Below are positions 9,178 through 56,700 of a stretch of 64,000 bases of DNA, piece by piece. This stretch comes from Oscillospiraceae bacterium (lineage in GTDB: Bacteria; Bacillota_A; Clostridia; Oscillospirales; Oscillospiraceae). Made by a program: the position numbers and the translations under genes. A model generated the notes under the pieces. The model was not told the DNA's origin and did no database searches. It was given only the letters and a program-made list of their open reading frames with translations. Position 1 is the first letter of the stretch. Each line of letters begins with the position of its first letter. The DNA is taken from positions 32,890-96,889 of the forward strand of contig CADADE010000005.1 of assembly GCA_902786615.1 (NCBI GenBank), written 5' to 3'.

Positions 9178-9942
9178 GTGACAAAAAACAAGATCCTGCT
9201 GATCGCCCAGACGCTTTTGTGCGTGACGCTGGTGATCATGTTGGCCGTGTCTGCCGTCGGGATCTACCGCAGCGGCATGGCGGAGAAAAACGACAATCCG
9301 CTGGCCTGGGTCTATACCCGAGAAAAGGTGGGCGCGGCGCTCAAGCCAGTGCTGCCGGTTTTCCTCGCGTCTTTGGCAGTGACGGCGGTTTGCGCCGTGA
9401 TGCAGGTGCGCGACGAGGATGCGGACAAGCCCGTCCAGGATATCGAGCTGAACCGCGATCTCATGCGCGCCCGGGTCGCGCAGCCGAGCGAGGAGATGAA
9501 AAAGGAGCAGGCTATCCAGAAAAAGCTCCTGTACGGCGGCTGGGGCGTCTTTGCCCTCTGCATGCTGCCGATCCTGCTCTATATGACAAACGCCGCGCAT
9601 TTCCCGAACGGCGATCTGGAGCAGGTGATCGGGGCGCTGGCGCTGCATGTGTTCCCGTGGATCATCCTGGGACTCGCGGCGCTGATGGTTTCCACCGTTT
9701 TGCAGGGAAAGAGCATCCGGCGCGAGTATGACGCCATCCTGGCACGCATCAGGGAAGAAAAGGCGGCCGGGATACAGGCAGAGCCGAAGAGCGCGGCTCC
9801 CGCGCGGAATGTGAACGCGGTGCGTATTGTCCTGCTGGTGCTTGCCGTGGTGTTCATCATCGTCGGCATCCGCAACGGCAGTATGATGGCGGTCGTCAAC
9901 AAGGCGATCAGAATTTGCACGGAGTGTGTTGGCCTTGGATAA
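9178..9942 (+). CDS. Membrane protein with C-terminal CD1871A-type CXXC domain
   Basis: About 254 residues with a GTG start at 9178, supported by AAGGAG at 9162-9167; the GTG at 9169 is too close to that site. Hydrophobic segments lie near residues 8-28, 55-75, 120-140 and 150-175. The last about 45 residues match the small CD1871A-family pattern (a transmembrane helix, then GIRNGSMMAVVNKAIRICTECVGLG-like sequence ending in C-T-E-C). In other Clostridia this CXXC protein is usually free-standing next to Fe-S and thioredoxin genes; here it is fused to a larger membrane protein. Its end overlaps the next gene, a Fe-S/TlpA protein, so the two probably pass electrons or thiols to each other. Confidence 0.75.
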   Translation: MTKNKILLIAQTLLCVTLVIMLAVSAVGIYRSGMAEKNDNPLAWVYTREKVGAALKPVLPVFLASLAVTAVCAVMQVRDEDADKPVQDIELNRDLMRARVAQPSEEMKKEQAIQKKLLYGGWGVFALCMLPILLYMTNAAHFPNGDLEQVIGALALHVFPWIILGLAALMVSTVLQGKSIRREYDAILARIREEKAAGIQAEPKSAAPARNVNAVRIVLLVLAVVFIIVGIRNGSMMAVVNKAIRICTECVGLG

Positions 9943-11971
9943 TATCAAAACCTCCTGGTGGGCTTCCCACCGTCCGTCCAAGAGACGGCTTGTGCAGCTC
10001 TATTGCGCACTGCTCTATAACGCCCATTTGAAGGGCTTTCTCGAAGGGGAAATCTACAAGAGCAAGACCCCGACCACCAAGGGGATCTGCGTGCCGGGCT
10101 TCAACTGCTACTCCTGCCCCGGCGCTGTCGGCGCGTGCCCTCTGGGCTCCCTGCAAAACGCCATCGGCACCACAAACAAGCAGATCGGCTTCTATGTTTT
10201 CGGCATTCTCATGCTCTACGGGCTGATTCTCGGCCGCACGATCTGCGGCTGGCTCTGCCCGCTGGGGCTGATTCAGGAGCTGCTGCACAAGATCCCCACG
10301 CCGAAGCTCAAAAAGAACCGCGTGACGCGCGCCCTTTCTTATCTCAAGTACATCATCCTCGCCGTTTTTGCCGTCGGCATTACGGCCTGGTACGGCATTG
10401 CCCACGGTGTGGCGGTGCCCGGCTTCTGCAAGTACATCTGCCCCGCCGGCACCTTTGAGGGGGCAATCTTCCTGCTCTCAAATCCCGCCCGCGCGGGAGA
10501 CTTCTCCATGCTGAACATCCTCTTCACGCGCAAGTTCGTGATCATGCTTGTCATCGGCCTTGCCTGCGTGTTCTGCTATCGCAGCTTCTGCCGCTTCCTG
10601 TGCCCTCTCGGCGCGATCTACGGCTTTTTCAGCAAGCTCGCCGTCGTCGGCGTGAAGGTGGACCCCACCCGCTGCAACCACTGCGGCGCGTGCGTGAGAA
10701 ACTGCGGCATGGATGTGCGCCATGTGGGCGATCATGAGTGCATCCACTGCGCCAAGTGCATGGATGTGTGCAATCAGAAAGCCATCAGCCTCAAGGCAGG
10801 CAGCTTCACGCTCAAGGCGCCCGCGGGCGGCTGCGCGGATGACAAGCCTGATTCCGAGGCCAAACGCAAAAAACTTGGCAAAATCGCCTGGGGCGTCGCC
10901 CTGGCGGTGCTGTGCGCAGCCCTTGTCTACTATAACTTCCTCGACCCGAACATCAAAAAGGCCGACACAAGCGAGCCTGCCGCGACGCAGACCGCCGCGG
11001 AGGAAGCGGCCCCGGCGGACTGGTCGAGCGACGCACCTGCCGGCAACCAGCCCGGGCAGCAGCTTGCCGACTTCACCATTACCTGCCTTGACGGCAGCGA
11101 GTTCCACCTGGCCGACCAGCGCGGCAAGCCCGTGTTCATTAACCTCTGGGCAACCTACTGCGGTCCCTGCGTGAAGGAGCTGCCGTATTTCAGCGAGCTC
11201 TACAAGAACCACGAGGACGATATCGCCATGCTGGCCCTGCACTCGGACATCGTGGACGACGATCCGCAGGAATATCTGAACGAGCACGGCAAGGACTGGG
11301 TCATGCCTTTCGCCGTGGAGAAAGACGACGAGGCGATCTGGAACATCGTGGGCGGCACGACCGCCATGCCGCAGACCATCGTCCTGAACCGCCATGGCGA
11401 GGTGATCTACAACCAGCGCGGCTCCGTGACGCCCGAGATGCTTGAGACCCTGTACGCCCAGGCGGCCGAGGGCGGGGCTGCGGATGCCTCCGCCTCGCAG
11501 ACAGCCCCGGCGGACTGGTCGAGCGACGCACCTGCCGGCAATCAGCCCGGGCAGCAGCTTGCCGACTTCACCATCACCTGTCTTGACGGCAGCGAGTTCC
11601 ACCTGGCCGACCAGCGCGGCAAGCCAGTATTTATCAATCTCTGGGCAACCTACTGCGGTCCCTGTGTGAAGGAGCTGCCGCATTTCAGCGAGCTCTACAA
11701 GAACCACGAGGGCGATATCGCCATGCTGGCCCTGCACTCGGACATTGTGGACGACGATCCGCAGGAGTACCTGAACGAGCACGGCAAGGACTGGGTCATG
11801 CCTTTCGCCGTGGAGAAAGACGACGAGGCGATCTGGAACATCGTGGGCGGCACGACAGCCATGCCGCAGACTATCGTCCTGAACCGCCATGGCGAGGTGA
11901 TCTACAACCAGCGCGGCTCTGTGACACCCGAGATGCTGGAGACCCTGTACGCCCAGGCGACAGAAAAGTAA
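9935..11971 (+). CDS. NapH-type 4Fe-4S membrane protein fused to two tandem TlpA thioredoxin domains
   Basis: About 678 residues. The N-terminal 300 residues have several membrane helices with cysteine motifs typical of NapH/CcoG-like proteins (CGWLCPLG, CKYICPAG, CRFLCPLG), then a ferredoxin pair CNHCGACVRNC and CIHCAKCMDVC. After another helix near residue 320 come two TlpA/ResA-like domains, each with WATYCGPCVKELP. The two are nearly identical, a recent 165-residue duplication. The expected role is moving electrons across the membrane to reduce extracytoplasmic disulfides. The start is TTG 9935 (GGAG 10 bases upstream), overlapping the previous gene; GTG 9926 is an alternative. Confidence 0.85.
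   Translation: MDNIKTSWWASHRPSKRRLVQLYCALLYNAHLKGFLEGEIYKSKTPTTKGICVPGFNCYSCPGAVGACPLGSLQNAIGTTNKQIGFYVFGILMLYGLILGRTICGWLCPLGLIQELLHKIPTPKLKKNRVTRALSYLKYIILAVFAVGITAWYGIAHGVAVPGFCKYICPAGTFEGAIFLLSNPARAGDFSMLNILFTRKFVIMLVIGLACVFCYRSFCRFLCPLGAIYGFFSKLAVVGVKVDPTRCNHCGACVRNCGMDVRHVGDHECIHCAKCMDVCNQKAISLKAGSFTLKAPAGGCADDKPDSEAKRKKLGKIAWGVALAVLCAALVYYNFLDPNIKKADTSEPAATQTAAEEAAPADWSSDAPAGNQPGQQLADFTITCLDGSEFHLADQRGKPVFINLWATYCGPCVKELPYFSELYKNHEDDIAMLALHSDIVDDDPQEYLNEHGKDWVMPFAVEKDDEAIWNIVGGTTAMPQTIVLNRHGEVIYNQRGSVTPEMLETLYAQAAEGGAADASASQTAPADWSSDAPAGNQPGQQLADFTITCLDGSEFHLADQRGKPVFINLWATYCGPCVKELPHFSELYKNHEGDIAMLALHSDIVDDDPQEYLNEHGKDWVMPFAVEKDDEAIWNIVGGTTAMPQTIVLNRHGEVIYNQRGSVTPEMLETLYAQATEK
11009..11960 (+). 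repeat. Two-copy direct repeat encoding duplicated TlpA domains, 495-bp period
   Basis: Copy 1 (about 11009-11465) and copy 2 (about 11504-11960) differ at only a few positions, mostly silent, and keep the reading frame because 495 is a multiple of three. Between them lies a short Ala/Ser-rich linker. The near identity indicates a recent duplication or ongoing gene conversion. Confidence 0.9.
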
Positions 11972-24605: not shown

Positions 24606-25586
24606 ATGGAAATGCGCGAAATACCGATCACGGATATCGGCATTAAAATAGGACAGACGGAGAATAAAGAGGGCGGCACCGGCTGCACGGTGTTCCTCTG
24701 TGAGCAGGGAATGCGCGCCGGACTCGACGTCAGGGGCGGCGGCCCCGCGTCTCGGGAAAGCGAGCTTTTACATCCGCTTGCCAACGCCCGTTTTATCCAC
24801 GCCATCGTTCTCGCCGGCGGCAGCGCCTTCGGCCTGGGGGCGGGAAACGGCGTCATGAGCTATTTGGAGCGGCGGGGCGTCGGCATTGACGTCGGCGTGA
24901 CCAAAGTGCCGCTCGTGGTGCAGTCCGATCTCTTTGATCTGACCGTGGGCGATCCGCTTGCGCGCCCGGACAGCGCCATGGGGTTCGAAGCGGCAAGACT
25001 TGCCGCGGAAGCACCGAACTACCGGGACGGAAACTACGGCGCAGGCTGCGGCGCGACGGTCGGAAAAGCCGCGGGAATGGACACCTGCATGAAGACCGGC
25101 ATCGGAAGCTATGCCGTGGAGCTTGGGCCGCTGAAGATCGGCGCGGTCGCTGCGGTGAACGCCTTCGGCGATATTTTCGACTGGAAGACGGGGCGCAAGG
25201 TCGCGGGGCTTCTGACGCCGGACAAGACTGCGTTTCGCAGCACAGCCGCGCTGATGCGGGAGAGGATCAGGCCGATTCAGAACAAATTTGTCGGCAATAC
25301 GACCCTCGGCGTCGTGATGACGAACGCGGCGATGAGCAAGGCGCAGCTCTGCAAAATCGCGGGCATGGCCCATGACGGGTATGCGCGGTCGATCAATCCC
25401 GTGCACGCCACAGTGGACGGAGACAGCATCTATGCCGTCTCGGTCGGGGACGTCGCCGCCGATCAGGATCTCGTCGGCACCCTCGCGGCGGAGCTCATGT
25501 CCGAGGCTATCCTCCGCGCGGCATACAGCGCTGAAAGCGCCTACGGCTATCTTGCTGCAAAGGATCTGACCTTCGGAACGAAATAA
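24606..25586 (+). CDS. P1 family peptidase (DmpA/NylC type, self-processing)
   Basis: 326 residues with the family hallmarks: GGTGCTVFLCEQG, VLAGGSAFGLGAGNGVMSYL, GAGCGATVGKAAG, and the autocleavage site GNTTLGVVMTN, where the Thr after Asn becomes the N-terminal nucleophile of the small subunit. P1 enzymes are Ntn hydrolases that release N-terminal residues (often D-amino acids or beta-peptides) from small peptides and amides. It lies 15 bp after the CARF-HEPN gene and just before the RiPP locus. A role in trimming or detoxifying a modified peptide with D-residues is worth considering but is inference. Confidence 0.88.
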   Translation: MEMREIPITDIGIKIGQTENKEGGTGCTVFLCEQGMRAGLDVRGGGPASRESELLHPLANARFIHAIVLAGGSAFGLGAGNGVMSYLERRGVGIDVGVTKVPLVVQSDLFDLTVGDPLARPDSAMGFEAARLAAEAPNYRDGNYGAGCGATVGKAAGMDTCMKTGIGSYAVELGPLKIGAVAAVNAFGDIFDWKTGRKVAGLLTPDKTAFRSTAALMRERIRPIQNKFVGNTTLGVVMTNAAMSKAQLCKIAGMAHDGYARSINPVHATVDGDSIYAVSVGDVAADQDLVGTLAAELMSEAILRAAYSAESAYGYLAAKDLTFGTK

Positions 25587-25664
25587 CAGAAGACGGATAT
25601 GTGGTGATTCTCAACAACAGCCAGGTCAGCAATGTAATCAATATGACAAAGAAGGAAAACAATG
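25587..25664 (+). pseudogene. Possible C-terminal gene remnant before the RiPP locus
   Basis: In a frame not used by the flanking genes the DNA reads DGYVVILNNSQVSNVINMTK and then a stop overlapping the next start. This resembles the end of a serine hydrolase or beta-lactamase-like protein with no body left. It could be chance. Confidence 0.2.
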
Positions 25665-27530
25665 GATAATCCCGAGGTAGTATTCCTGTCCGCGCCCTAT
25701 ACGTTTCCGCTGCGGGTCTCGCTTGCCCTTTCCATGTTTCAGGCCCGGCTCACGCAGGATGGCGTCTCCTCCTATGTGTACTATCCCATGTTCGCCATGA
25801 TGCGGCACATGGGCAGAGAGCTGACCGCGCGCTTTGCAAGGCTTCGGTCGCTTACGCTTTTTGAGGAGTTCATCTTCGCGCACTTGACGGGCATGGAGGA
25901 GAACGGAACGCCGGAGGAGTTTGCGGCGGTTTCTGCCGAGCGCGACCCCACGATCGACCCGGAAACCTTTGCCCGTATGCTGCGCCGCGCGCGGCAGGCG
26001 GCGGACAAGTGCACGGAGGAGGCTGCGCGCCGGATCGTTTCTCTTCATCCGCGCGTGCTCGCGGCGAGCAGCCTGTTCATGCAGAATAACGCGAGCCTCG
26101 CCATCCTCAAAAGGGTGCGCGAGCTCGAGCCGGGCATCCGCACCATGATGGGCGGCGTCAACTGCAGCGGGGAAGCGGGGGCTGCCATACTCCGCTTTTA
26201 TCCGCAGGTGGACGCCATCTTCTTCGGCGAGGGGGACATGGGCATCACCCGGGCGTGCCGGGCGCTGATGACCGGAGAGAAAGCGCTGCGGCCGGAGGGG
26301 CTTGTCATGCGGGGCGATGCGATTCCCAGGCCGCTGCCGCACCCCATGACCCACAATATGAACGACGCGCCGATCCCCGATTTCTCGGACTTTCTCCGGC
26401 AGATGCGGGAGGAATGCCCGGCGGATATGCTCACGGAGATCCTGGACGACGAGCAGGGGCTCATCCTGCTGGCGGAGGGCTCCCGCGGCTGCTGGTGGGG
26501 CGAAAAGCAGGCATGCAGCTTCTGCGGTCTGAACGGCGAAAAAAACATCTACAGAGCCAAAACGCCGGAGCGCCTTTTTGAAGAGATCCGGCAGCTTTCC
26601 GCACGCTATGACGCAAGCACTGTCGAACTGACCGATAATGTGCTGAGCCGGGAAACGGTGCGCGGTCTGCCGCCCCTGCTCAAGACGCTGGAGAGGGAGC
26701 TGTTTCTGATCGCGGAGGTGCGCACAAGTCTCACCGAGCGTGAGCTCAGAGAGCTGCGTGGGGCGGGATTTCGCATGATGCAGGCCGGGGTCGAGACGAT
26801 CCAGGACCATCTGCTTGCGCTGATGGGAAAGGGCGGCAGCGCCGTGGGCAACGTGGCTTTCATGAAATACTGCATGCGCAGCGATGTACAGCTGATGTGG
26901 AACCTGCTTTACGCCGTTCCCGGCGAGCGGGCGGAGGATTATGATCAGCTCACAGAGCTGATCCCGAAGCTTACCCATTTCAGACCGCCGCAGAACATGA
27001 GCCGTATCCTCTTTCAGAAATACAGCCGCTACCTATCGGATCCCGACAGCTTCGGACTCGTTCTGAAAGCAGGCGCGCTCTATCCCTTCCTCTATGGGGA
27101 CAGGCCGGAGCTGATCGAAGCGCTGGCGTTCTTCTATGATCTTGTCGGAGGGGAGACAGCTGCGCTGTTTGAAGCGCATAAGCCCCTGTATCGGAAAATG
27201 AAAGAGGCGGGCGGCGCCTGGCAGAGCCTTTGGATGGAGGGGCGCCCTCCCAGACTGACGATCTGTGACAGGGGCGCGTACACCGTGATCACAGACACGC
27301 GCCCCTGCAGAAAATCCGCCCTCAGCTTTCTTCAGGGGGCGGAGGCGGAGCTTTGCAGTATATGCGATGCGCCCGTGTCCTTTAAAACAATCATGGAAAA
27401 AACCGGCGGACGATATCCCGAACAGCGGGTACGCGAAGCGATCGACTGGCTGCTCGAGCGCAGCTTCCTGATTTGCCTCAGCGGGAGATATCTGTGCCTC
27501 GCGCTGCCGCAGGCGGCGGATGAAACATGA
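25662..27530 (+). CDS. RiPP maturation radical SAM protein 1 (B12-binding type)
   Basis: 622 residues. The N-terminal about 230 residues fit a cobalamin-binding-like fold (FLSAPYTFPLRVSLALSMF; later MMGGVNCSGEAG and DAIFFGEGD). The radical SAM core has SRGCWWGEKQACSFCGLN with Cys 277, 285 and 288 (C-x7-C-x2-C), the signature of the ribosomal peptide maturation radical SAM protein 1 family that travels with NHLP leader peptides. The C-terminus has the family's helical domain. Such enzymes methylate or otherwise rework core peptides; the exact reaction here is unknown. It is the first gene of a nine-kilobase operon ending in the precursor. B12 binding is inferred from family, as the classical DxHxxG motif is not evident. 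Confidence 0.88.
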   Translation: MDNPEVVFLSAPYTFPLRVSLALSMFQARLTQDGVSSYVYYPMFAMMRHMGRELTARFARLRSLTLFEEFIFAHLTGMEENGTPEEFAAVSAERDPTIDPETFARMLRRARQAADKCTEEAARRIVSLHPRVLAASSLFMQNNASLAILKRVRELEPGIRTMMGGVNCSGEAGAAILRFYPQVDAIFFGEGDMGITRACRALMTGEKALRPEGLVMRGDAIPRPLPHPMTHNMNDAPIPDFSDFLRQMREECPADMLTEILDDEQGLILLAEGSRGCWWGEKQACSFCGLNGEKNIYRAKTPERLFEEIRQLSARYDASTVELTDNVLSRETVRGLPPLLKTLERELFLIAEVRTSLTERELRELRGAGFRMMQAGVETIQDHLLALMGKGGSAVGNVAFMKYCMRSDVQLMWNLLYAVPGERAEDYDQLTELIPKLTHFRPPQNMSRILFQKYSRYLSDPDSFGLVLKAGALYPFLYGDRPELIEALAFFYDLVGGETAALFEAHKPLYRKMKEAGGAWQSLWMEGRPPRLTICDRGAYTVITDTRPCRKSALSFLQGAEAELCSICDAPVSFKTIMEKTGGRYPEQRVREAIDWLLERSFLICLSGRYLCLALPQAADET

Positions 27531-27546
27531 CAGGAGGGCGGAGATC

Positions 27547-28149
27547 ATGGCAGACGTCTATCGAAAGAATATATCCCCACAGCGCGGGAGCGACCGTACC
27601 AATCAGATCATGACTGTCCATACCCCGGCGCACTGGTTTTTGCTTGCGGGCCTTGTGCTGGTTTGCGTCGGCTTTACGCTGTGGGCGTTTTTCGGAAGCC
27701 TCAGCAAAACCGCCGCTGCGAGCGGCCTGTATCATCCGGGCAGCTCCAAATATGGCGAGATCCTGGCTTTCATGCCGCTTGCGACGGGGAAAACGGTAGA
27801 CGTCGGCATGGATGTGACGGTTACGCTCTCCGGCTACAGCATGCAGGAATTCGGGCATATGAAGGGAACTGTCACCTATGTGGATGACTTCGTCGCCTCT
27901 GCCGACGAGATCTACCAGCTCCTTGAGGATGAGATCCTCGCAAACAGCTATATCCAGAACGGCCCCAGCGTCGCGGTGGTCTGCAAGCTGCAGGAGGACA
28001 AAAGCGCCGAAAACGGCTTTTATTGGAGCAATGAGCGGGGCAAACGTCTCAAAATACATGACGGAACCGGAGCACAGCTCACCATTGTCGAGGAAACTAC
28101 GCATCCCATTCAACTGGGATTCCCGCAGCTGAGGGAGTATTTCCGATGA
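27547..28149 (+). CDS. NHLP system secretion protein, short HlyD-like
   Basis: 200 residues from ATG 27547 (AGGAGG 9 bases upstream; ATG 27520 overlaps the previous gene and lacks a good site). One membrane helix, WFLLAGLVLVCVGFTLWAFF, is followed by a compact beta-rich region. Position and ends match the membrane-fusion partner of NHLP export systems, but it is shorter than typical HlyD proteins and I see no long coiled coil. It probably bridges the ABC pair to the outside. It overlaps the C39 transporter gene by 4 bp (ATGA), indicating translational coupling. Confidence 0.78.
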   Translation: MADVYRKNISPQRGSDRTNQIMTVHTPAHWFLLAGLVLVCVGFTLWAFFGSLSKTAAASGLYHPGSSKYGEILAFMPLATGKTVDVGMDVTVTLSGYSMQEFGHMKGTVTYVDDFVASADEIYQLLEDEILANSYIQNGPSVAVVCKLQEDKSAENGFYWSNERGKRLKIHDGTGAQLTIVEETTHPIQLGFPQLREYFR

Positions 28150-30359
28150 AAGACGAAACAAAGAGCACGTCCGCGCAGCGCGTCGTTGTCCCCGGTGAGC
28201 GCAGGAAAAAGCGCGCGCGTACGCCGGAGGTCTTTCAGATGGAAGCGGCGGAGTGCGGGGCGGCCTGCCTCTCCATGATCCTGGGATACTACGGCTGCTA
28301 TCTGCCGATGGAGGAGCTTCGGCAGGTGTGCGGCGTGTCGCGCAACGGCTGCACGGCAAGCGGGATCCTTCGGGCGGGGCAGCACTATGGCCTTGTGGGC
28401 GGAGGCTTTCGCTGCGAGCCGGAAAAGCTCGCCAAAGCGCCCAAGCCCTGCATCCTGCACTGGAACTTTGACCACTTCGTGGTGCTGGAGGGCTTTCGGG
28501 ACGGCAGGGCCATCATCAACGACCCCGCCGCCGGACACCGCCGCGTCTCGGCAGAAGAGCTGGATCGCGCCTTTACGGGGGTCATGCTCTGCCTGGAACC
28601 GGGACCGGGCTTTCAGAAGCAGGGGAAAAGCCACCGGCTTTTTGAGATGGCCGGAGAGCGCCTGCGGGGAGAGGGCGGCGTATTCCGCTATCTGTTTATC
28701 CTGAATCTCGTGTTTTTGGTCTCGGGTGTTGCGCTGCCGATCCTCACGCAGATCCTGATGGACGAGGTGGTGGCGGCGGGCGACCCGGACTGGACCGTGT
28801 CCATCGTGCTTGCCATGGCGGTGGTCTACGCCTCAAACATGCTTATCAGCTTCCTGCAGTCCAGCATTCTGCTGCGGCTGCGCCTCAAGCTGAATACCGT
28901 GACAAGCTATCGGCTGATCCGCCACATCCTGCGCCTGCCCTTTGCCTTCTTTGAGCAGCGCTATACGGGCGAGCTTGCAAAGCGCGAGGAGAGCAACAGC
29001 GCGGTCAACGCCCATCTGGCTGGCAGCTATCTCGTTACCCTGGTGAGCCTCTCCAACTGCCTGCTGTATCTCGGACTCATGCTGCTGTACGATGTGCGCC
29101 TGACAGCTTGGGGGCTTCTGGGAATGGCGCTCTGCCTTTCGGTTTTGCTCCTTACGGCCGAGCCGTTGAAAAACCTTTCAATGAAAGCGCAGCAGGATGA
29201 AAACCAGATGAACGGCAGACTCTGCGCCGGGCTCTCCATATATCCTTCCCTCAAGGCGAGCGGCGTGGGAAACGACTTCGTGGCCGAGCTTTTGGGTTAC
29301 TATGTCAACACCACCCGCAGCGCCCAGAAAATGACCCAGCTCCACCATATTCTGACCTCCATCCCGCATGCGGTTTCCTCTATGTTCAATGTCCTGCTGC
29401 TGATCATCGGCAGCACCATGGTCATTGACGGACGGCTGACGGTCGGCGTGCTCACTGCCTTCTGCATGGTCTACGGGCAGTTCATGACGCCGATGATCGA
29501 CTTTATCTCCATGGCGCAGGAGACCCAGACCATGCGCGCAAATCTTGCCAATGTGCAGGATATCGAGCAGGCAAAAACAGACCCGCGCTTTGACCTTCCG
29601 CCGGAGAGCGCCGCAGAGCCGTCGGGAAACAGCCTGGAGCTCAAAAACGTGTCGTTCGGTTACGACCCCACCGGGACGCCGCTCATCCGGGATCTGTCGC
29701 TGACGGTCGAGGACGGCAGCCGGGTCGCCGTTGTGGGCCCCTCGGGCTGCGGGAAGAGCACCCTCCTGAAGCTGGCGGCAGGACTCCTGCCCGCCTGGGA
29801 GGGGGAAATCAACTGCGGCGGCGTCCCGCTGTCGGCACTGCCGGCGGAGAAGCTGACAAAGCGCCTCGCGGTGGTAAACCAGAAGGAGAGCTTCTTCTCC
29901 GATACGATTGAAAACAATCTCACGCTGTGGGATCGCGGCTTTGAGGAAAAGCAGCTTCTCAAAGCGCTGCAGGATGCCGAAGCGCTGGAGCTTGTGGGCG
30001 GGCTGCAAGGCGGTCTGGAGCATGAGCTCGGAGAGGGCGGAAGAAGCCTGTCCGGGGGGCAGCGCCAGCAGCTTGCCGTTGCCCGCGCGCTGATCCGCTC
30101 GCCGGGCCTGCTGTTTCTGGATGAAGCGACCAGCGCCATGGACCCGATCCTGGAGCAGAAGATCATGGAGAACCTGGCCGGAAGAAAATGCACCTGCCTG
30201 ATTGCGGCACACAGACTCTCGGCCGTGCGCGACTGCGATTTGATCGTCGTGATGGATCACGGCGCGATCGTGGAGGCGGGCACCCATGAGAGCCTCATGC
30301 GTCAGCAGGGTCTTTATGCCGCCATGTATGCCGCAGGTGGAAAGAAGGTGCAGCCATGA
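28146..30359 (+). CDS. NHLP-type peptidase/permease/ATPase ABC exporter (C39 protease)
   Basis: 737 residues. An N-terminal C39 peptidase domain has QMEAAECGAACLSM (catalytic Cys 37 with the oxyanion Gln before it), His 110 in DHFVVLEG and Asp 126 in NDPAAGH. Six membrane helices follow (about 180-450), then an ATPase with Walker A GPSGCGKST, signature SLSGGQRQQL and Walker B LLFLDEAT. It should cut the precursor after the GG of its leader and export the core. Start and stop overlap both neighbours by 4 bp. It may also serve other double-Gly peptides such as the LysM mini-protein at 55124. Confidence 0.95.
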   Translation: MKDETKSTSAQRVVVPGERRKKRARTPEVFQMEAAECGAACLSMILGYYGCYLPMEELRQVCGVSRNGCTASGILRAGQHYGLVGGGFRCEPEKLAKAPKPCILHWNFDHFVVLEGFRDGRAIINDPAAGHRRVSAEELDRAFTGVMLCLEPGPGFQKQGKSHRLFEMAGERLRGEGGVFRYLFILNLVFLVSGVALPILTQILMDEVVAAGDPDWTVSIVLAMAVVYASNMLISFLQSSILLRLRLKLNTVTSYRLIRHILRLPFAFFEQRYTGELAKREESNSAVNAHLAGSYLVTLVSLSNCLLYLGLMLLYDVRLTAWGLLGMALCLSVLLLTAEPLKNLSMKAQQDENQMNGRLCAGLSIYPSLKASGVGNDFVAELLGYYVNTTRSAQKMTQLHHILTSIPHAVSSMFNVLLLIIGSTMVIDGRLTVGVLTAFCMVYGQFMTPMIDFISMAQETQTMRANLANVQDIEQAKTDPRFDLPPESAAEPSGNSLELKNVSFGYDPTGTPLIRDLSLTVEDGSRVAVVGPSGCGKSTLLKLAAGLLPAWEGEINCGGVPLSALPAEKLTKRLAVVNQKESFFSDTIENNLTLWDRGFEEKQLLKALQDAEALELVGGLQGGLEHELGEGGRSLSGGQRQQLAVARALIRSPGLLFLDEATSAMDPILEQKIMENLAGRKCTCLIAAHRLSAVRDCDLIVVMDHGAIVEAGTHESLMRQQGLYAAMYAAGGKKVQP

Positions 30360-32656
30360 ACGCCAAAATACAGTCCGACCCTTTCTCTGCCGGCAGCATG
30401 GCAAAGACCGACGGCGGCGAAGCCCGACGGAAGATGCCGACGCAGGGGGAGCAGGCCAATGTTGCCGAGTGGCTGCACAGCGTTTTTGCATCCGACAGCA
30501 AAAGAACGCCGGAGCGGGAAGCGCTGACAGGCGATCTTCTGTATGACGCGGCGAGCTTTCTGTGCCTGCGCCGCGAGGTCAAAATCTGCAGCTTTGAGCG
30601 CCTGCGCAGGGCCTGCCCGAAGGAACGTGATTTCAGGGATATTGCCCGTCTGTCCGGCTTCCCCTGCCGCGAGGTAAATCTTCCGGAGCACTGGCCATCG
30701 GCCGACATTGAGCCGGTTCTGGCCTTTCTGCATGATTCCGGCGCGCCGGACGGAGAGATCCGGGTCCCCGTCGTCTGCTTTCCGGGGCGGCTCGGGAGAG
30801 GATATCTCTATGATCCGCGCACCGGCCAGATCAGGCGCATGACGAAGGACGATGTCAGCGGCGTGGAGAGAACAGCCTGGGTGCTGTGCAGACCGTTCCC
30901 CTCGCAGACGGTGGAGCTGCGGGACCTGATTCGCTTCTCGCTGCGTGAGCTTGCTGTTTCGGATGTCCTTCTCGTGGTGCTGGCCATGTGGCTCGTAACG
31001 CAGGTGGGGCTTGTCATCAGCGTGCTGAATAAGTCCATCTACGACTATCTGATCCCCATGGGAAACGAAACCGCGCTGTATCAGCTTGGCGGACTGTTCC
31101 TTGCGGTGATGGCGGCAAACGTGCTGTTCTCCATTTTGCAGAAGCTGGTGCAGTTTCGCCTGACCAGCCGCATGGGCTACAATCTGCAGTCGGCAATCTA
31201 TGACCGCCTCTTCCATTTATCGGAAAGCTATATTTCCGGGAAGGAGTGCGGCGTCCTGGCCTATCAGGCGAGCAATCTTTCCTCGACCTATGTCTCCGTG
31301 TTCCAGGGGGTCATGACCATCCTGATGCAGGGCTTCTTTTCCCTGTTTTATCTCAGAAAAATGCTCCGGCTGTCGCCGAAGCTCTTCTCGATTGGCCTTG
31401 GCGTCGTGGCGGCGGAGAGCATTGCGGTCATGGTGCTGAGCCTTGCCATGCGCCGGTTTTCGATGGCGCGCGCGAAACAGACGGGCAAAATCCAATCCTT
31501 CCTGTATCAGGTTTTCAGCGGCGTCGGCACCGTCCGTACAGCCGGGGCGGAGGATGAGGTTGTGCACCGTTATATGACGATGAAGACGGAGCTGTACCGC
31601 AACGACCGCAAAAACGACAGGACGCGGCACCTCAGCGCGCAGGCTCTCTCGCTGGGCAATGCGGCGGCCATGCTGACGTTTTACCACTACATCGGAAGCA
31701 ACGCCGCGGAAATAAGCCTCGGCACCTTCATGAGCTTTCTGGCCGCGTTCGGCTTCTTCGCCGCCGCGATGGTTCAGGTGGTCGCCGCCGGAACAGAGGT
31801 GTACGCCACCATGCCGATGCTGCGCTATTCCTCGGACATTCTCAAGCAAAAGCCGGAGCGAAGCCTCGGGGGAACCATCCTGGGGGAGATGAAGGGAGAT
31901 ATCATCATCTCCGGCGTTTCCTTCCGCTATGAGGGGCAGGAGAAGCCGGCGCTGAACAATGTTTCCCTCCATATAAAGCCCGGGGAGTACCTGGGCATCG
32001 TGGGCGAGTCGGGCAGCGGAAAATCGACGCTGCTGCGGCTGCTGCTGGGCTTTGAAAAGCCGGCTTCCGGAGAAATCTTTTACGACGGCGTCTCCCTGAA
32101 AAAGCTCAATCTGCCGGAGCTGCGCCGCAGCATCGGCACTGTGCTGCAGGACGGCTGCATCTTTTCCGGCAGTATTTATAAGAATGTCAGCATTTCCGCG
32201 CCGTCCATCACGCCCGAGCAGGTGCGGGAGCTTATGGATACCGTCTGCCTTTCGGAGGAAATCGGCGAGATGCCCATGGGTCTCATGACCCTGATCTCGG
32301 AAGAGGCGCAGACCATCTCCGGCGGACAAAAGCAGCGCATCCTGCTTGCCAGAGCCATTGCGAACAAGCCCAGGATCCTGTTTCTGGACGAGGCCACAAG
32401 CTCGCTGGACAATCTGACGCAGGAGAAAATTGCGAACAATCTGGCGCGGCTTGCGTCCACACGCATCGTCATTGCGCACAGACTCTCAACCGTGCGCGGC
32501 TGCGACAGGATCATCGTGCTCCATAACGGGCAGATTGCGGAGCAGGGAAGCTACGACGAACTGATGCGCAAGCGCGGGCGCTTCTTCCGCATGGCCTCGC
32601 GACAGATGGCGCACAGCGAAACAGAAATAAAAAGAAAGGACGGATGCAATGCATGA
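30356..32656 (+). CDS. NHLP-type ABC transporter permease/ATPase, second subunit
   Basis: 766 residues. The N-terminal about 190 residues are soluble and lack a C39 Cys; this matches the second ABC subunit of NHLP systems. Membrane helices span about 195-470, and the ATPase has GESGSGKSTLLRL, TISGGQKQRILLARA and RILFLDEATSSLD. It likely pairs with the peptidase-containing subunit as a heterodimer. The coding end overlaps the SPASM radical SAM start. Confidence 0.93.
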   Translation: MNAKIQSDPFSAGSMAKTDGGEARRKMPTQGEQANVAEWLHSVFASDSKRTPEREALTGDLLYDAASFLCLRREVKICSFERLRRACPKERDFRDIARLSGFPCREVNLPEHWPSADIEPVLAFLHDSGAPDGEIRVPVVCFPGRLGRGYLYDPRTGQIRRMTKDDVSGVERTAWVLCRPFPSQTVELRDLIRFSLRELAVSDVLLVVLAMWLVTQVGLVISVLNKSIYDYLIPMGNETALYQLGGLFLAVMAANVLFSILQKLVQFRLTSRMGYNLQSAIYDRLFHLSESYISGKECGVLAYQASNLSSTYVSVFQGVMTILMQGFFSLFYLRKMLRLSPKLFSIGLGVVAAESIAVMVLSLAMRRFSMARAKQTGKIQSFLYQVFSGVGTVRTAGAEDEVVHRYMTMKTELYRNDRKNDRTRHLSAQALSLGNAAAMLTFYHYIGSNAAEISLGTFMSFLAAFGFFAAAMVQVVAAGTEVYATMPMLRYSSDILKQKPERSLGGTILGEMKGDIIISGVSFRYEGQEKPALNNVSLHIKPGEYLGIVGESGSGKSTLLRLLLGFEKPASGEIFYDGVSLKKLNLPELRRSIGTVLQDGCIFSGSIYKNVSISAPSITPEQVRELMDTVCLSEEIGEMPMGLMTLISEEAQTISGGQKQRILLARAIANKPRILFLDEATSSLDNLTQEKIANNLARLASTRIVIAHRLSTVRGCDRIIVLHNGQIAEQGSYDELMRKRGRFFRMASRQMAHSETEIKRKDGCNA

Positions 32657-33984
32657 AGTGGTCAAGATACAGCACCCTCTTTGAGTCGAAAAGAAACGGA
32701 TGGCTGCTGTTCAATACGGTTTCCCGCTCCCTCCTGACCGTGGAGCCGGAGCAGCTTCCCACGATACGGGGCATTATGGCGGACCCGGAGGGATATGATT
32801 ATTCCAACGCGGTGAAGCTGTATATGCAGCTGCGCGCGATGGGCTTTCTGGTGGAGGACGGAAAGGACGACGAGTTTTACAACATCCACAAGATGCGCAC
32901 CCTCGCCTTTCTGTACGGCAACCGGAGCCTGACGCTCACCTTTGCCCTGTCCATGGCCTGCAACTTCGATTGCAGCTACTGCTATGAGAGCAGCCATGTT
33001 GGCCACGTCATGACCCAGGAGACGGAGGACAAGGTCATGCGCTTTATCCGCAAATTCCGCGCGGATAATCTGTACATCACCTGGTACGGCGGCGAGCCGC
33101 TGCTGGCCTTTGACCGCATCCTGAGCATCAACCGGCGGCTGCAGGACATGGGGAAAAGGTATGAGGCCTCCATGATCACAAACGGGTATCTTTTGACGCG
33201 GGACAAGGCGGAGCGGCTCAACGAGCTTCGCATCACCTTCCTTCAGATCACGCTCGACGGCAGCAGGGAGACGCACAATGCCCGGCGCTATCTCAAGGGC
33301 GGCGGCGAAACCTACGACCGCATCCTGGAGAATATCGACGGGGTGATGGCCTCGGACTTTCGCGGGATCGTTCATGTGCGCGTCAACGTGGACGGGCGCA
33401 ACGACGAGGAATTTGCCCAGGTGTACAAAATGATACGCGACAAATACCCGAAGGACTTCGGGCGGCGCATCACGGTCTATCCGGGCTTCGTCAAGGGGGA
33501 TGCGCACCCGGACCGCGGCTGCTTCTTCGACCCGGTGCAGCAGGGCGAATTCATCTCCCGCATGGTGGAAAAGTATGACATTGCCCCCTTCTCCCCGTTC
33601 CCGGAGCGGAAAATGCAGGGCTGCATCCTGACCCGCCGCAACGCCTATGTAATCGGGCCGGACGGGGAGATGTACAAGTGCTGGGACGACGTGGGGATCC
33701 CCGAAAAGGTGGTCGGTACGGTCGACAGCTTCAACGACTGGAACATGGGCCTGATCGCGGAGGGGATGACCGCCTGCAGCTATCTGGATTCCCGGGAGTG
33801 CCGGGAGTGCTTTTATTTCCCAATCTGTGACGGCGGCTGTCACAGGATCCGGCAGAACAATCTCCACACAGACCACCCGCAGAGCAGCTGTTCGTGGTTC
33901 CGCGGAAATCTGGAGAACCTGCTGGAGCTGCACTATGAGAGCCGCAAAAAGCAGGCGGCGCAAAAGAAGAAATCACAGGGGTGA
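32653..33984 (+). CDS. Radical SAM/SPASM peptide maturase
   Basis: About 443 residues. A radical SAM cluster motif SMACNFDCSYCYES (Cys 103, 107, 110) sits after an about 95-residue N-terminal region resembling a peptide-recognition (RRE/PqqD-like) domain. TWYGGEPLL and ITLDGSRETHNARR follow, and the C-terminus has SPASM cysteines (CILTRRNAYVIGPDGEMYKC, CRECFYFPICDGGC). SPASM maturases often link Cys sulfur to carbon atoms of a core peptide (sactipeptide/ranthipeptide chemistry), and the core here is full of Cys. ATG 32644 is also possible but sits only 3 bases from AAAGGA. Confidence 0.88.
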   Translation: MKWSRYSTLFESKRNGWLLFNTVSRSLLTVEPEQLPTIRGIMADPEGYDYSNAVKLYMQLRAMGFLVEDGKDDEFYNIHKMRTLAFLYGNRSLTLTFALSMACNFDCSYCYESSHVGHVMTQETEDKVMRFIRKFRADNLYITWYGGEPLLAFDRILSINRRLQDMGKRYEASMITNGYLLTRDKAERLNELRITFLQITLDGSRETHNARRYLKGGGETYDRILENIDGVMASDFRGIVHVRVNVDGRNDEEFAQVYKMIRDKYPKDFGRRITVYPGFVKGDAHPDRGCFFDPVQQGEFISRMVEKYDIAPFSPFPERKMQGCILTRRNAYVIGPDGEMYKCWDDVGIPEKVVGTVDSFNDWNMGLIAEGMTACSYLDSRECRECFYFPICDGGCHRIRQNNLHTDHPQSSCSWFRGNLENLLELHYESRKKQAAQKKKSQG

Positions 33985-33990
33985 GGCCGC

Positions 33991-35325
33991 TTGCAGGACG
34001 GAGAATACGCCCGCTTTAAGCGGGCTGCGGAGACCTTCGCCATCGACCCGGACTTTCGGCGGCTGGCCGCAGAGCATCCCGCCGCCGCGCTTTCGGCTGC
34101 TGGCCTTGCCCTGGAGGATCCGCCTGCGGCCGTGGAGGCCGCAGCCATGGTGAGCTGCGGCTGCGCCGTGGAAGCCGGAGAGAATCCGTATGCAAAAGAG
34201 TATGTAAGGAGAAACGGCGTCACGGGTGCCTATGTGGCAGAGACGCACGCAAGAGAAGCCTATGCGGATCGGGAACTCTACTTGTTCGCGGACGCCGTGC
34301 GAAACCGCTGCCGCATGGAAAACCGGCTTCTGCGCTTCCACAGCAATATCCGCTATTACCCTTTGTGCTTTGAATTGAGTCGGGGCTGCTCGGTCCAGTG
34401 CCCGTTTTGCGGCCTGGATGCGAAGCCCTGGATCGCGGACTTTCGCTATACGCCGGAGAACGCCCGCCTGTGGAGAGCGGTTTTGCAGGCCTCGCGGGAG
34501 CTTCTCGGGCCGGTCGCGGGGGCGTCCCCGTGCTATTTTGCCACGGAGCCGCTGGATAATCCGGATTACGAACGCTTCCTTGAGGACTTTGCCGAAGTCA
34601 TGGGCAGCGTTCCCCAGACCACGACGGCCGTTGCCGACAGGGAAGCGGAGCGGCTTCGGCGGCTGATGCGCCGGCTCGGCCCGGAGAGACTTGAAAGGCA
34701 GGCCGCCCTGCGCTTCACCGTGCGCACGCTGGCGCAGTTTCACCGTATCTTGGAGCTGTTTTCGCCGGAGGAGCTGATCGGCGTGGAGCTTCTTCCCAAC
34801 AACCCGGAATCCCTGAACCGCTATTCCGCGTCCGGGAGAACGAGAAGCGGAAGAACCGGGAAGAGCGATCCGCTCAGCTATTCGATCTGCTGCGTCGCCG
34901 GGCTCAGAGTCAATATGGTCGAGAAAAGCATAAGTTTTATCGAGCCGGAGATCCCGGACGAGCGCTGGCCGCTGGGCCTGCGCGTGCGGGAGGAGCGCTC
35001 CTTTTCCGACGCGGAAAGCTATAGGCGTGCCACAGCGGAGCTGACGGGAAAATGGTCGGTCGGCACTCTTCCGCCCCGGCGCGCGCTGGCCTGGAACCGC
35101 CATTGCCGGATCGAAAGGACGGCAGACGCCGTCTGCTTTCTGGGGGACGGCGTCGGCTATCGCATCCCGAAAAATCCGTTCACCGAAGCGATGCTGCCGC
35201 TCGTGGAGCAGGGACATGAGTTTGAGGAGATCCTGCGGGAGACGGGGCTTCCCGCAGCGTGGAGGGAGAGCTTCACGGCGATGATGAATCAGCTCTATCT
35301 CAGGGGATATCTGAGACTGCGCTGA
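33991..35325 (+). CDS. PoyD-like radical SAM RiPP amino acid epimerase
   Basis: 444 residues with a TTG start preceded by GGGGTGAGG. The cluster motif is ELSRGCSVQCPFCGLDA (Cys 133, 137, 140), typical of the radical SAM family that epimerises L- to D-residues in proteusins such as polytheonamide. Supporting features are FATEPLDNPDYE and the Arg-rich middle. Family members act on precursors with nitrile-hydratase-like leaders, as here, and need a Cys H-donor; ICCVAG near residue 306 is a candidate. Epimerase is the best assignment, yet whether it makes D-residues in this Ala/Gly/Cys core is untested. The precursor gene follows 52 bp later. Confidence 0.82.
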   Translation: MQDGEYARFKRAAETFAIDPDFRRLAAEHPAAALSAAGLALEDPPAAVEAAAMVSCGCAVEAGENPYAKEYVRRNGVTGAYVAETHAREAYADRELYLFADAVRNRCRMENRLLRFHSNIRYYPLCFELSRGCSVQCPFCGLDAKPWIADFRYTPENARLWRAVLQASRELLGPVAGASPCYFATEPLDNPDYERFLEDFAEVMGSVPQTTTAVADREAERLRRLMRRLGPERLERQAALRFTVRTLAQFHRILELFSPEELIGVELLPNNPESLNRYSASGRTRSGRTGKSDPLSYSICCVAGLRVNMVEKSISFIEPEIPDERWPLGLRVREERSFSDAESYRRATAELTGKWSVGTLPPRRALAWNRHCRIERTADAVCFLGDGVGYRIPKNPFTEAMLPLVEQGHEFEEILRETGLPAAWRESFTAMMNQLYLRGYLRLR

Positions 35326-35377: not shown

Positions 35378-36421
35378 ATGAGCTGGACACAGAAAAAACT
35401 TGAGGAGCTTTACCAGGAAATCAATCGCAGGCTGAAAACCGACCCGGAATTTGCGGAAAAGCTCCGGAAGGATTCCAGGAAGACGCTGGAGGAGCTTGCC
35501 GGTCAGCCGCTTCCCGAGGGCTTCAGCCTCAAGTTCGTGGAGAAGGACGATAATTACGGGCAGACCTATGTGCTTCCGGACTTCGCGGGAGAGGAGATCG
35601 ACATCAGCGATCTGGACGATATCTCCGGCGGAAAGAACGGCCGGTACAGTTCGTCGGGAAATCAGTCCTGCCAGATCAAGAAAGGGCATAACGCCGTTTC
35701 CGTTCTCGGAATCGTTACGGCCTGCGCCGCGGCCGTCTCCTTCACGGCCTGCCCGGCGGACGCCTGCGGCGCGGCTGCCTGCCCGGCGGACGCCGGCTGC
35801 GGCGCCAAAGCCTGCGGCGGCAAGGCATGCGCCGGTAAGGTGGGCTGCGGCGGCGACGCCTGCGGAAGCGAGGCCTGCGGCGGCGCAGCGGGCTGCGCGG
35901 CCAAGGCCTGCGGCGGCCAGGGCTGCGGCGCGGCTACCGGCTGCGCGGCAGAAGCCTGCGGCGGCGACGCCTGCGGGGCCTATGGCGCGTGCAGCGCCAA
36001 GGCCTGCGCCGGAGAAGCCTGTGCCTCCAACGCGGCATGTATGAACCATGCCTGTGGCGGCGACGCCTGCGGCGGTCACGGCGGCTGCTTCGGAAAAGCC
36101 TGCGGCGGGGAAGCCTGCGGCGGCTATGGCGCCTGCGCCGCCAAGGGCTGCGGCCGCGACGCCTGCGCCGCTTTTGTCGGCTGTCTTGCGGAGGGGCACA
36201 TCAAGGAATCCTGCGCCGCGCATGCTATGCATGAGCATGAGGAGGAGCATACAAACGCATGCCAGGGCGTTTTCGAGATGTCCGAGAACGGAAGCTTCCT
36301 CGGGTGCGAGGCCTATGACCCCATCGCGGACGGCGTCGACCCCAGCGCATTGGAAAGCAGAGACGCGTTTGCCGAATATCTTTTCGGCGACGGCCAATTC
36401 GACGGCGACGGCGGACAGTGA
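35378..36421 (+). CDS. Proteusin-type RiPP precursor with 16-residue Cys repeats
   Basis: 347 residues. Residues 1-85 are a nitrile-hydratase-like (NHLP) leader, KKLEELYQEINRRLKTDPEF then LDDISGG with the double Gly at 84-85, where the C39 protease should cut. Residues 116-310 are mainly Ala, Gly and Cys. From Cys 125 to Cys 269 cysteines fall at 125, 130, 135, 141, 146, 151 and so on, a strict 5-5-6 spacing: nine units C-x4-C-x4-C-x5, common filling C-G-G-[DEK]-A. One charged residue (K, D or E) per five is typical. A tenth unit has His 274 for the middle Cys. The tail (about 280-347) is His-rich then acidic. Its length is far beyond a usual RiPP core. Confidence 0.93.
   Translation: MSWTQKKLEELYQEINRRLKTDPEFAEKLRKDSRKTLEELAGQPLPEGFSLKFVEKDDNYGQTYVLPDFAGEEIDISDLDDISGGKNGRYSSSGNQSCQIKKGHNAVSVLGIVTACAAAVSFTACPADACGAAACPADAGCGAKACGGKACAGKVGCGGDACGSEACGGAAGCAAKACGGQGCGAATGCAAEACGGDACGAYGACSAKACAGEACASNAACMNHACGGDACGGHGGCFGKACGGEACGGYGACAAKGCGRDACAAFVGCLAEGHIKESCAAHAMHEHEEEHTNACQGVFEMSENGSFLGCEAYDPIADGVDPSALESRDAFAEYLFGDGQFDGDGGQ
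35750..36184 (+). repeat. 48-bp in-frame tandem repeat region of the RiPP core
   Basis: Nine units of 48 bp, each encoding 16 residues, plus the first codon of a tenth. TGC appears at codon positions 1, 6 and 11 of every unit, while the other codons vary. The sequence differences between units show age rather than a fresh expansion. Confidence 0.9.
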
Positions 36422-36424
36422 ATA

Positions 36425-36466
36425 AAAAATCGAGGCTGCAGCAAACAGGCTGCGGCCTCGATTTTT
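36425..36466 (+). terminator. Terminator closing the RiPP locus
   Basis: AAAAATCGAGGCTGCAGC pairs with GCTGCGGCCTCGATTTTT. It lies just after the precursor stop and before a convergent gene, with T-runs usable on both strands. Confidence 0.9.
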
Positions 36467-36480
36467 GCTTATGATGTGCA

Positions 36481-56429: not shown

Positions 56430-56700
56430 AGTAAAAAGGCTATGAAGGAAAATCGCTTCCGAAGGATCGCCACAGAGAGCCGGCGGCTGGTGTGAGTCGG
56501 CGCGGGAAACGGAAAGCGTCTCATTCCTGAGCGGGATCTGCGAAGTGCGCACAGCGGCATGGTAGCGGATCACGGGAGGCCCCGTTACAGGCCATGGGTT
56601 TATCGGAACCCGAGAGAGTCCGCCGTCGGCGGAAAAAACAGGGTGGTACCGCGAATACAAATTCGCCCCTGAAGCTCAGTGAGCTTCGGGGGTTTATCTA
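56430..56700 (+). ncRNA. T-box leader, probable Leu (CTC) specifier
   Basis: A stem I with CACAGAGAGCCGGCGGC and GGTGTGAG features leads to the T-box sequence AGGGTGGTACCGCG (56640-56653), then a terminator, CCCCTGAAGCTC with GAGCTTCGGGG and TTTAT. The specifier loop lies between the AAGGA and TTCCT strands; its right side reads TCTCA, giving codon CTC (Leu) followed by A. Uncharged tRNA-Leu would bind and let transcription continue into the LeuA-like gene. Confidence 0.92.

What the first reader, a model, noticed from the sequence alone, without database searches (positions are those of the whole stretch)
35378..36421. Proteusin-type precursor with a strict 16-residue, three-cysteine repeat
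Seen directly: after a nitrile-hydratase-like leader ending at GG (84-85), cysteines from residue 125 to 269 follow 5-5-6 spacing without a single break, nine units of C-x4-C-x4-C-x5. Known proteusins have shorter cores without this regularity. The period suggests a solenoid with three faces per 16-residue turn, or regular thioether or metal linkage. The tenth unit has His for one Cys, and the His-rich then acidic tail is not repetitive. I know of no described RiPP class with this core.
Basis: partly seen in the sequence, partly recalled or inferred. Interest (0 to 1): 0.95.

Follow-up and report, generated by a model that had tools for sequence, protein, structure and literature searches.

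The report
Cysteine-repeat proteusin with CxxX rule
This gene cluster, likely from a gut bacterium, encodes a peptide precursor with 28 evenly spaced cysteines, each followed three residues later by an amino acid that is never glycine, serine or threonine; its radical enzymes are predicted to bridge each such pair through sulfur, which would give a stiff, heavily modified rod.

Summary
The ORF (347 aa) has an NHLP (proteusin-type) leader and 28 cysteines in strict 5-5-6 spacing (residues 125-269). It ends an operon with a B12 radical-SAM C-methyltransferase, an NHLM exporter with C39 peptidase, a SPASM radical-SAM enzyme and a PoyD-type epimerase. The uniqueness claim does not hold: NCBIfam has a 'Cys-every-fifth' model (CefA) that this core passes, 29 further proteins share leader and core, and siblings with the same leader and enzyme pair have short cores without the repeat.
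The deeper invariant is different. Three residues after a core cysteine there is never Gly, Ser, Thr, Pro, Ile or Cys: 0 of 1008 positions in the first 52 precursors, and 1 of 379 in 78 precursors fetched afterwards, 76 of them without a long repeat. Neighbouring positions are rich in Gly/Ala. Where a cysteine is lost, the +3 residue changes with it (within-protein permutation, z about 45).
Best reading: the SPASM enzyme joins each Cys to residue +3, likely at its beta-carbon: Gly has none, and Ser/Thr would give unstable products. A C-x-x-X ring plus one or two linker residues gives the 5-5-6 period. No chemistry has been measured.

The parts
35378..36421 (+). Precursor: NHLP leader (residues 1-85), hydrophobic cap with invariant S108 and C116, core with 28 Cys in 5-5-6 register (125-269), His-rich then acidic tail
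35378..35632 (+). Leader, residues 1-85, ending at GG (expected C39 cleavage site; inferred)
   Evidence: TIGR03793 E 7.6e-7, below cut-off; 9cjx DprE2 proteusin match
35750..36184 (+). Core array, residues 125-269: nine 16-residue units plus C269; the residues at Cys+3 form a mostly basic (step 1), acidic (step 2) and neutral/aromatic (step 3) stripe from unit 4 on
33991..35325 (+). PoyD-type radical SAM peptide epimerase (TIGR04517, 330.1 bits, cut-off 325); CxxxCxxC at 133-140 and C301 in 17 of 17 aligned
32644..33984 (+). SPASM radical SAM maturase, proposed C-x-x-X thioether former; nearest models NF038107 CefB (206.2 bits, cut-off 600), TIGR04463, Clo7bot
30356..32656 (+). NHLM exporter ABC2 (TIGR03797, 618.1 bits, cut-off 709.4)
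28146..30359 (+). NHLM exporter ABC1 with C39 peptidase domain (TIGR03796 769.6 bits, cut-off 853.3; PF03412 116.7 bits)
27520..28149 (+). Short HlyD-like NHLM secretion protein (matches the C-terminal part of TIGR03794, 108.9 bits, cut-off 156.2)
25662..27530 (+). B12-binding radical SAM RiPP C-methyltransferase (TIGR03975, 490.2 bits, cut-off 281.85)
24606..25586 (+). Peptidase family S58 protein; may or may not belong to the cluster
   Evidence: PF03576 108.4 bits; no tblastn hit in the 17 related loci, whose flanks are limited
36425..36466 (+). Intrinsic terminator closing the operon
   Evidence: fold of 36418-36475: -32.2 kcal/mol, z -7.75

Best explanation
The ORF encodes a precursor with a proteusin (NHLP) leader, and its SPASM radical-SAM neighbour is predicted to join each core cysteine to the residue three positions further on by a thioether, likely at that residue's beta-carbon. 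Shown: the leader type, the operon, the 5-5-6 register, the +3 rule and its coupling to cysteine. Inferred: each C-x-x-X closes a small ring; one linker residue (mostly Ala/Gly) separates rings and two follow every third ring, which gives 5-5-6 and a three-faced, 16-residue turn; the PoyD-type enzyme sets some residues to the D form; the B12 enzyme C-methylates; the C39 exporter cuts at GG and secretes the product. In the window's core this would be about 30 consecutive rings with basic, acidic and aromatic/neutral stripes. The biological role (envelope-active peptide, scaffold or signal) is untested.
For: (1) +3 rule: 38 repeat cores, 938 scorable Cys: G, S, T, P, I, C at +3 = 0, V = 8; G is 447 at +1, 386 at +2, 149 at +4. 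(2) It does not depend on the repeat: 14 sibling cores without it, 0 of 70 (V 1). (3) Prospective test: 108 hits, 99 new, 86 with a recognisable core and two or more Cys, 78 independent; at 379 positions one T, three V, no G/S/P/I/C; 1 of 78 proteins (P0181) breaks the rule and 76 of 78 have no long repeat. (4) Cys loss: 78 register positions without Cys in 23 proteins; +3 then shifts to S/E/G (chi2 295.6, permutation mean 16.4, z 44.6); +4 z 4.4, -1 z 2.7, +1 z 1.4. (5) Controls: at Cys+3, G/S/T/P/I are 24 of 73 in the cluster's seven other proteins and 23 of 66 in six other window proteins. (6) The acceptor is downstream: shortest tails after the last Cys are 4 in the first set (11 of 50) and 3 in the new one (2 of 78), apart from P0252 (0), probably a non-member. 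(7) SPASM and PoyD genes lie with the precursor in 16 of 17 loci; the 17th (L003) is cut at a contig end. (8) The SPASM enzyme is related to PapB (NF047865 E 1.4e-33, 116.6 bits, cut-off 340), which forms Cbeta thioethers in CX3D and accepts D-residues (PMC9413430, passages). (9) PoyD's essential Cys (PMC8326336, passages) may correspond to C301, invariant in 17 of 17.
Against: No mass or NMR data exist. The SPASM enzyme is far below the CefB cut-off (206.2 vs 600) and below the cut-off of every equivalog among the 25 of 74 families shown, so its chemistry is not assigned by family. +2 and -2 also couple to Cys loss (z 17.1 and 15.0). PapB uses Asp/Glu acceptors, whereas Ala is 212 of 938 here, which would need attack on an unactivated methyl. 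Val occurs at +3 (8 of 938, 1 of 70, 3 of 379). A 43%-identical SPASM enzyme beside an NHLP peptide, with no PoyD hit in 18 kb, has a core CSLS that breaks the rule (L030). The sequences are related, so raw counts overstate independence.
Confidence: 0.62

Rival explanations
1. Sactipeptide-type: the SPASM enzyme links each Cys to the alpha-carbon of residue +3.
For: The same C-x-x-X coupling; Ala, Asn and Lys are known sactipeptide acceptors (recalled).
Against: Alpha-linkage should tolerate Gly, Ser and Thr, and Ser/Thr are acceptors in thuricin CD (recalled); here G/S/T are 0 of 1008 and 1 of 379.
Confidence: 0.15
2. The +3 residue is constrained by the PoyD-type epimerase or another enzyme, and Cys is modified or used elsewhere (for example linked to another position).
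For: PoyD is present in 16 of 17 loci; L030, without a PoyD hit in 18 kb, breaks the rule.
Against: +3 composition depends on whether a Cys is there; an epimerase has no known need to avoid Ser or Thr (inference); the tails of two CefA-like proteins without NHLP leader also obey (43 core Cys, three of them with Val), though their gene context was not seen.
Confidence: 0.13
3. An unmodified three-sided beta-solenoid with Cys ladders (metal binding or disulfides); the radical enzymes act only on the cap.
For: 16-residue register kept even where Cys is lost; beta-strands in the full-length model.
Against: Core-only model has mean pLDDT 48; no convincing fold match; the +3 rule holds in mini-cores with two to four Cys that cannot be solenoids.
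Confidence: 0.07

Closest known systems
CefA/CefB 'Cys-every-fifth' RiPP system (NCBIfam NF038108, NF038107)
   Same: Core passes the CefA cut-off (40 vs 30 bits); the +3 rule also holds in the tails of two CefA-like proteins, one named CefA by NCBI; CefB is the best-scoring model for the SPASM enzyme
   Different: NHLP leader, 5-5-6 instead of 5-5-5 spacing, PoyD epimerase and NHLM exporter; SPASM enzyme at 206.2 bits against 600
Proteusins (polytheonamide, PoyA/PoyD)
   Same: NHLP leader, PoyD-type epimerase, B12 radical-SAM C-methyltransferase, hydrophobic start of the core (the last recalled for polytheonamide)
   Different: Cys-rich repeated core, SPASM maturase, 262 residues after GG; polytheonamide's core is near 48 residues (recalled)
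Ranthipeptide freyrasin (PapA/PapB)
   Same: Several successive Cys-to-downstream-residue rings (six in PapA; PMC9413430); related SPASM enzyme (E 1.4e-33)
   Different: PapB uses CX3D/E; here C-x-x-X with many acceptor types and far more proposed rings
NxxcA/NxxcB
   Same: Beta-thioether across two intervening residues (Cys23-Asn20; PMC8326336 passage)
   Different: Acceptor lies before the Cys and is Asn; here after it; -3 is Gly in 317 of 939, so a Cbeta acceptor there is excluded

Membership tests
Proteusin (NHLP-leader RiPP) | Nitrile-hydratase-like leader (TIGR03793) | tested here: met
   Window 28.9 bits, E 7.6e-7, below the 50.9 cut-off; relatives in L006, L012, L013 above it (57.6, 66.6, 58.9); 9cjx match
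Proteusin (NHLP-leader RiPP) | Dedicated maturation enzymes in the cluster | tested here: met
   TIGR04517 330.1 over 325; TIGR03975 490.2 over 281.85
CefA | Core scores over NF038108 cut-off | tested here: met
   40 vs 30 bits
CefA | Cys every fifth residue throughout | tested here: not met
   Every third step is six; some relatives are all fives or tens (P0012, P0031)
CefB | SPASM enzyme over NF038107 cut-off | tested here: not met
   206.2 vs 600 bits
Ranthipeptide | Non-alpha thioether shown chemically | not testable with these tools
   Acceptor spectrum points to Cbeta; no MS/NMR
Sactipeptide | S-to-Calpha thioether shown chemically | not testable with these tools
   Near-absence of Gly/Ser/Thr at +3 speaks against
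Pentapeptide-repeat protein | Pfam repeat match | tested here: not met
   No pentapeptide family listed for P0001, P0012, P0030, P0032, P0033 at E up to 10 (HMMER's filters drop most weak matches)

The most novel reading that the evidence does not exclude
A single SPASM enzyme with an almost side-chain-blind acceptor site writes about 30 consecutive C-x-x-X beta-thioether rings onto one proteusin, combined with D-residues, to make a genetically encoded, three-striped, sulfur-stapled rod; the same enzyme family makes few-ring mini-peptides from sibling precursors.
Probability: 0.42. Interest if true: 0.93.

Novelty: new variant of a known kind. Interest (0 to 1): 0.82.

Why it matters
It turns an unassigned family of gut and rumen peptides into a testable chemical rule: C-x-x-X with X almost never Gly, Ser, Thr, Pro or Ile. 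If right, the window's one SPASM enzyme would have to accept nine side chains at its 28 in-register sites, which would be broad for radical thioether formation and useful for stapling peptides, and the product would be a far longer thioether array than the six rings of PapA. It also couples ranthipeptide-like and proteusin (D-residue) chemistry in one cluster, which I did not find described in the held library.

Tried and rejected
Acceptor at +4 (PapB-like CX3X): considered after because 11 of 50 cores end 4 residues after the last Cys; rejected because +4 holds 149 Gly of 938, changes far less than +3 when Cys is lost, and 2 of 78 new cores (P0178, P0202) end at +3. Acceptor at -3 (NxxC-like): rejected, 317 Gly of 939. 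Pentapeptide-repeat fold: no Pfam match. Solenoid: strands in the full-length model only; no convincing fold hit for the core. Viral contigs: 6 pattern stretches, no relative. Genome surveys with the SPASM enzyme at E <= 1e-70: 1 of 394 and 2 of 392 genomes, the centre genome included each time, so the family is patchy. A first control (G/S/T/P/I/C at +3 in 212 of 546) counted related SPASM/PoyD copies and their CxxC cluster motifs, so I replaced it by the one.

Rows dropped before counts: 55 precursors to 52 as near-duplicates (L015_10001, P0006, P0018); P0002 (the window itself), P0014 and P0025 (look frame-broken or chimeric) left out earlier. P0025 has G/S/T/P/I/C at +3 only in and beyond its broken stretch; P0002, P0006, P0014 and P0018 have none. 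In one search, 12 of the 52 had too few gaps to be counted, and L001_6456 was classed 5-5-6 although its gaps are 6 and 7, which adds off-register values. In one search two truncated proteins (L009, P0024) were left out besides. In one search, 13 of 99 were left out for lack of a core start or two Cys, and 8 as copies or near-copies of known cores; P0252, probably not a member, supplies the two Cys without a +3 residue. AlphaFold2 on the core used 11 sequences, the full-length run 33.

Full report
WHAT IS THERE. The ORF at 35378-36421 (+) is a 347-residue protein. Residues 1-85 are an NHLP-type leader ending in GG (below the model's cut-off; solved relative DprE2 9cjx). From C125 to C269 the Cys spacing is 5-5-6 nine times; 26 Cys pairs lie at distance 16 where 20000 shuffles reach at most 13. 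It is the last gene of an operon with overlapping or closely spaced genes (coordinates): B12 radical-SAM C-methyltransferase, short HlyD, NHLM ABC1 with C39 peptidase, ABC2, SPASM radical-SAM enzyme, PoyD-type epimerase, precursor, closed by a strong terminator at 36425-36466. No genome is held for the window. The closest listed SPASM protein (92%) is from an Oscillospiraceae MAG, so the host is probably of that group.

THE FAMILY. A protein search gave 32 hits: the window's own protein, 29 relatives with this leader and core (P0014 and P0025 look frame-broken or chimeric) and two proteins with crystallin or lectin domains before a CefA-like tail. A scan of genome contigs gave 17 loci out of 178 pattern stretches, in MAGs titled Ruminococcaceae, Lachnospiraceae, Bacillota, Clostridia, Blautia and Treponema, some titled as from sheep or goat stomach compartments. 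The SPASM gene (50-81% identical) and the PoyD gene (39-60%) lie with the precursor in 16 of 17 loci; in the exception, L003, the precursor lies at a contig end. The C-methyltransferase was seen in 10 of 17, with several loci too short to judge. Of the 13 Cys of the SPASM enzyme, 11 are invariant in the alignment of 17 (three of them scorable in 16), C378 is kept in 14 of 17, and C3 is not conserved; the epimerase keeps CxxxCxxC and one further Cys, C301, in 17 of 17. PoyD needs a single conserved Cys for epimerisation (PMC8326336, passages); that C301 is its counterpart is my inference.

REGISTER. In the relatives the core often starts with fives and then turns to strict 5-5-6. Of 839 gaps after the cap, 828 are 5, 6, 10, 11, 15 or 16, and 153 of 160 distances between successive six-steps are 16 (40 of 52 proteins had enough gaps). 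Where a Cys is lost it is replaced mostly by Gly, Thr or Ser without change of register. So a 16-residue, three-step period is common in the family. Some members (P0012, P0031) show no six-step.

THE +3 RULE. In 38 repeat cores with 938 scorable Cys, residue +3 is D 256, A 212, N 181, E 81, H 53, K 42, Y 41, Q 34, F 21, V 8, L 6, R 3, and never G, S, T, P, I or C, although +1, +2 and +4 hold 447, 386 and 149 Gly. The same holds in 14 sibling cores that lack the repeat (0 of 70; one V), and in the tails of the two CefA-like proteins (43 core Cys, three V; the one Thr listed lies outside the tail). I then fetched new precursors with a different query alignment (108 hits, 99 new). Of these 86 had a recognisable core with two or more Cys and 78 were independent; at 379 positions there is one T, three V and no G, S, P, I or C. 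Only P0181 of the 78 breaks the rule, and 76 of the 78 have no run of six or more 5/6 gaps. In controls, G/S/T/P/I follow Cys at +3 in 24 of 73 cases in the cluster's seven other proteins and in 23 of 66 in six other window proteins. Within proteins, positions that keep register but have lost the Cys show mostly Ser, Glu and Gly at +3; the coupling is far stronger at +3 (z 44.6) than at +2 (17.1), -2 (15.0), +4 (4.4), -3 (2.9), -1 (2.7), +1 (1.4) or -4 (0.1). The shortest tails after the last Cys are 4 (11 of 50) and 3 (2 of 78), except in P0252 (0), probably a non-member.

READING. The simplest cause is that the SPASM enzyme forms a bond between Cys and residue +3. A thioether at Cbeta explains the excluded set: Gly has no Cbeta, Ser and Thr would give an unstable hemithioacetal, Ile and Val are branched, Pro is tied back (inference). 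PapB, a relative (E 1.4e-33, below its cut-off), makes Cbeta thioethers in CX3D motifs and accepts D-residues (PMC9413430, abstract and passages); NxxcA has a Cbeta thioether to an Asn three residues before the Cys (PMC8326336, passages). Against it, Ala as acceptor is unusual, Val occurs at low frequency, a more distant SPASM enzyme (43%) without a PoyD hit nearby has a peptide that breaks the rule (L030), and nothing has been measured. The ring C-x-x-X plus one small linker residue gives five; a second linker residue (Gly in 48% of third steps) every third ring gives six. In the window the +3 residues from unit 4 on run K/E/K/H/K/K at step 1, Q/D/E/D/E/D at step 2 and A/Y/N/H/Y/F at step 3, which would be three stripes on a rod. 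AlphaFold2 cannot model the bridges; the full-length model has strands at 165-279, the core-only model is of low confidence.

PRIOR KNOWLEDGE. NCBIfam has CefA/CefB, but the name 'Cys-every-fifth' is in no held paper, and nine searches listed no paper whose title or abstract describes a proteusin with a SPASM thioether enzyme and this motif (listings seen; passages read in PMC8326336, PMC9413430 and PMC13289728). The held library lacks most subscription journals. I file this as a new variant: proteusin by leader and epimerase, CefA-like by core, ranthipeptide-like by proposed chemistry.

Noticed in passing
P0028 (413 aa, contig of 83993 bases): A C39 peptidase domain is joined in one reading frame to an NHLP leader and a 5-5-6 core; either a real fusion of exporter peptidase and precursor or an assembly fault.
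   Followed up: no
L030:7516-9259: A 43%-identical SPASM enzyme sits beside an NHLP peptide with core GCSLSIFRMC; no PoyD hit in the 18 kb, and the +3 rule is broken. May mark the edge of the enzyme clade.
   Followed up: partly
P0032, P0033: CefA-like cysteine tails follow crystallin, lectin or fascin-like domains, one in a Methanosarcinales MAG; the +3 rule holds there without an NHLP leader.
   Followed up: partly
P0197-P0244 (mini-precursors): Many NHLP precursors of about 100-120 residues with a few C-x-x-X motifs, including one from the named species Luxibacter massiliensis (P0230); the easiest test substrates.
   Followed up: partly
window 24606-25586: Family S58 peptidase just upstream of the cluster; could act on D-residue or modified peptides.
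   Followed up: no
window 9926-11971: Protein joining NapH-like ferredoxin and ResA/TlpA-like thiol-disulfide domains.
   Followed up: no
window 56433-56673: T-box leader, 113 bits.
   Followed up: no
L014, L015: Two sets of NHLM ABC exporters flank the mini-precursor cluster.
   Followed up: no
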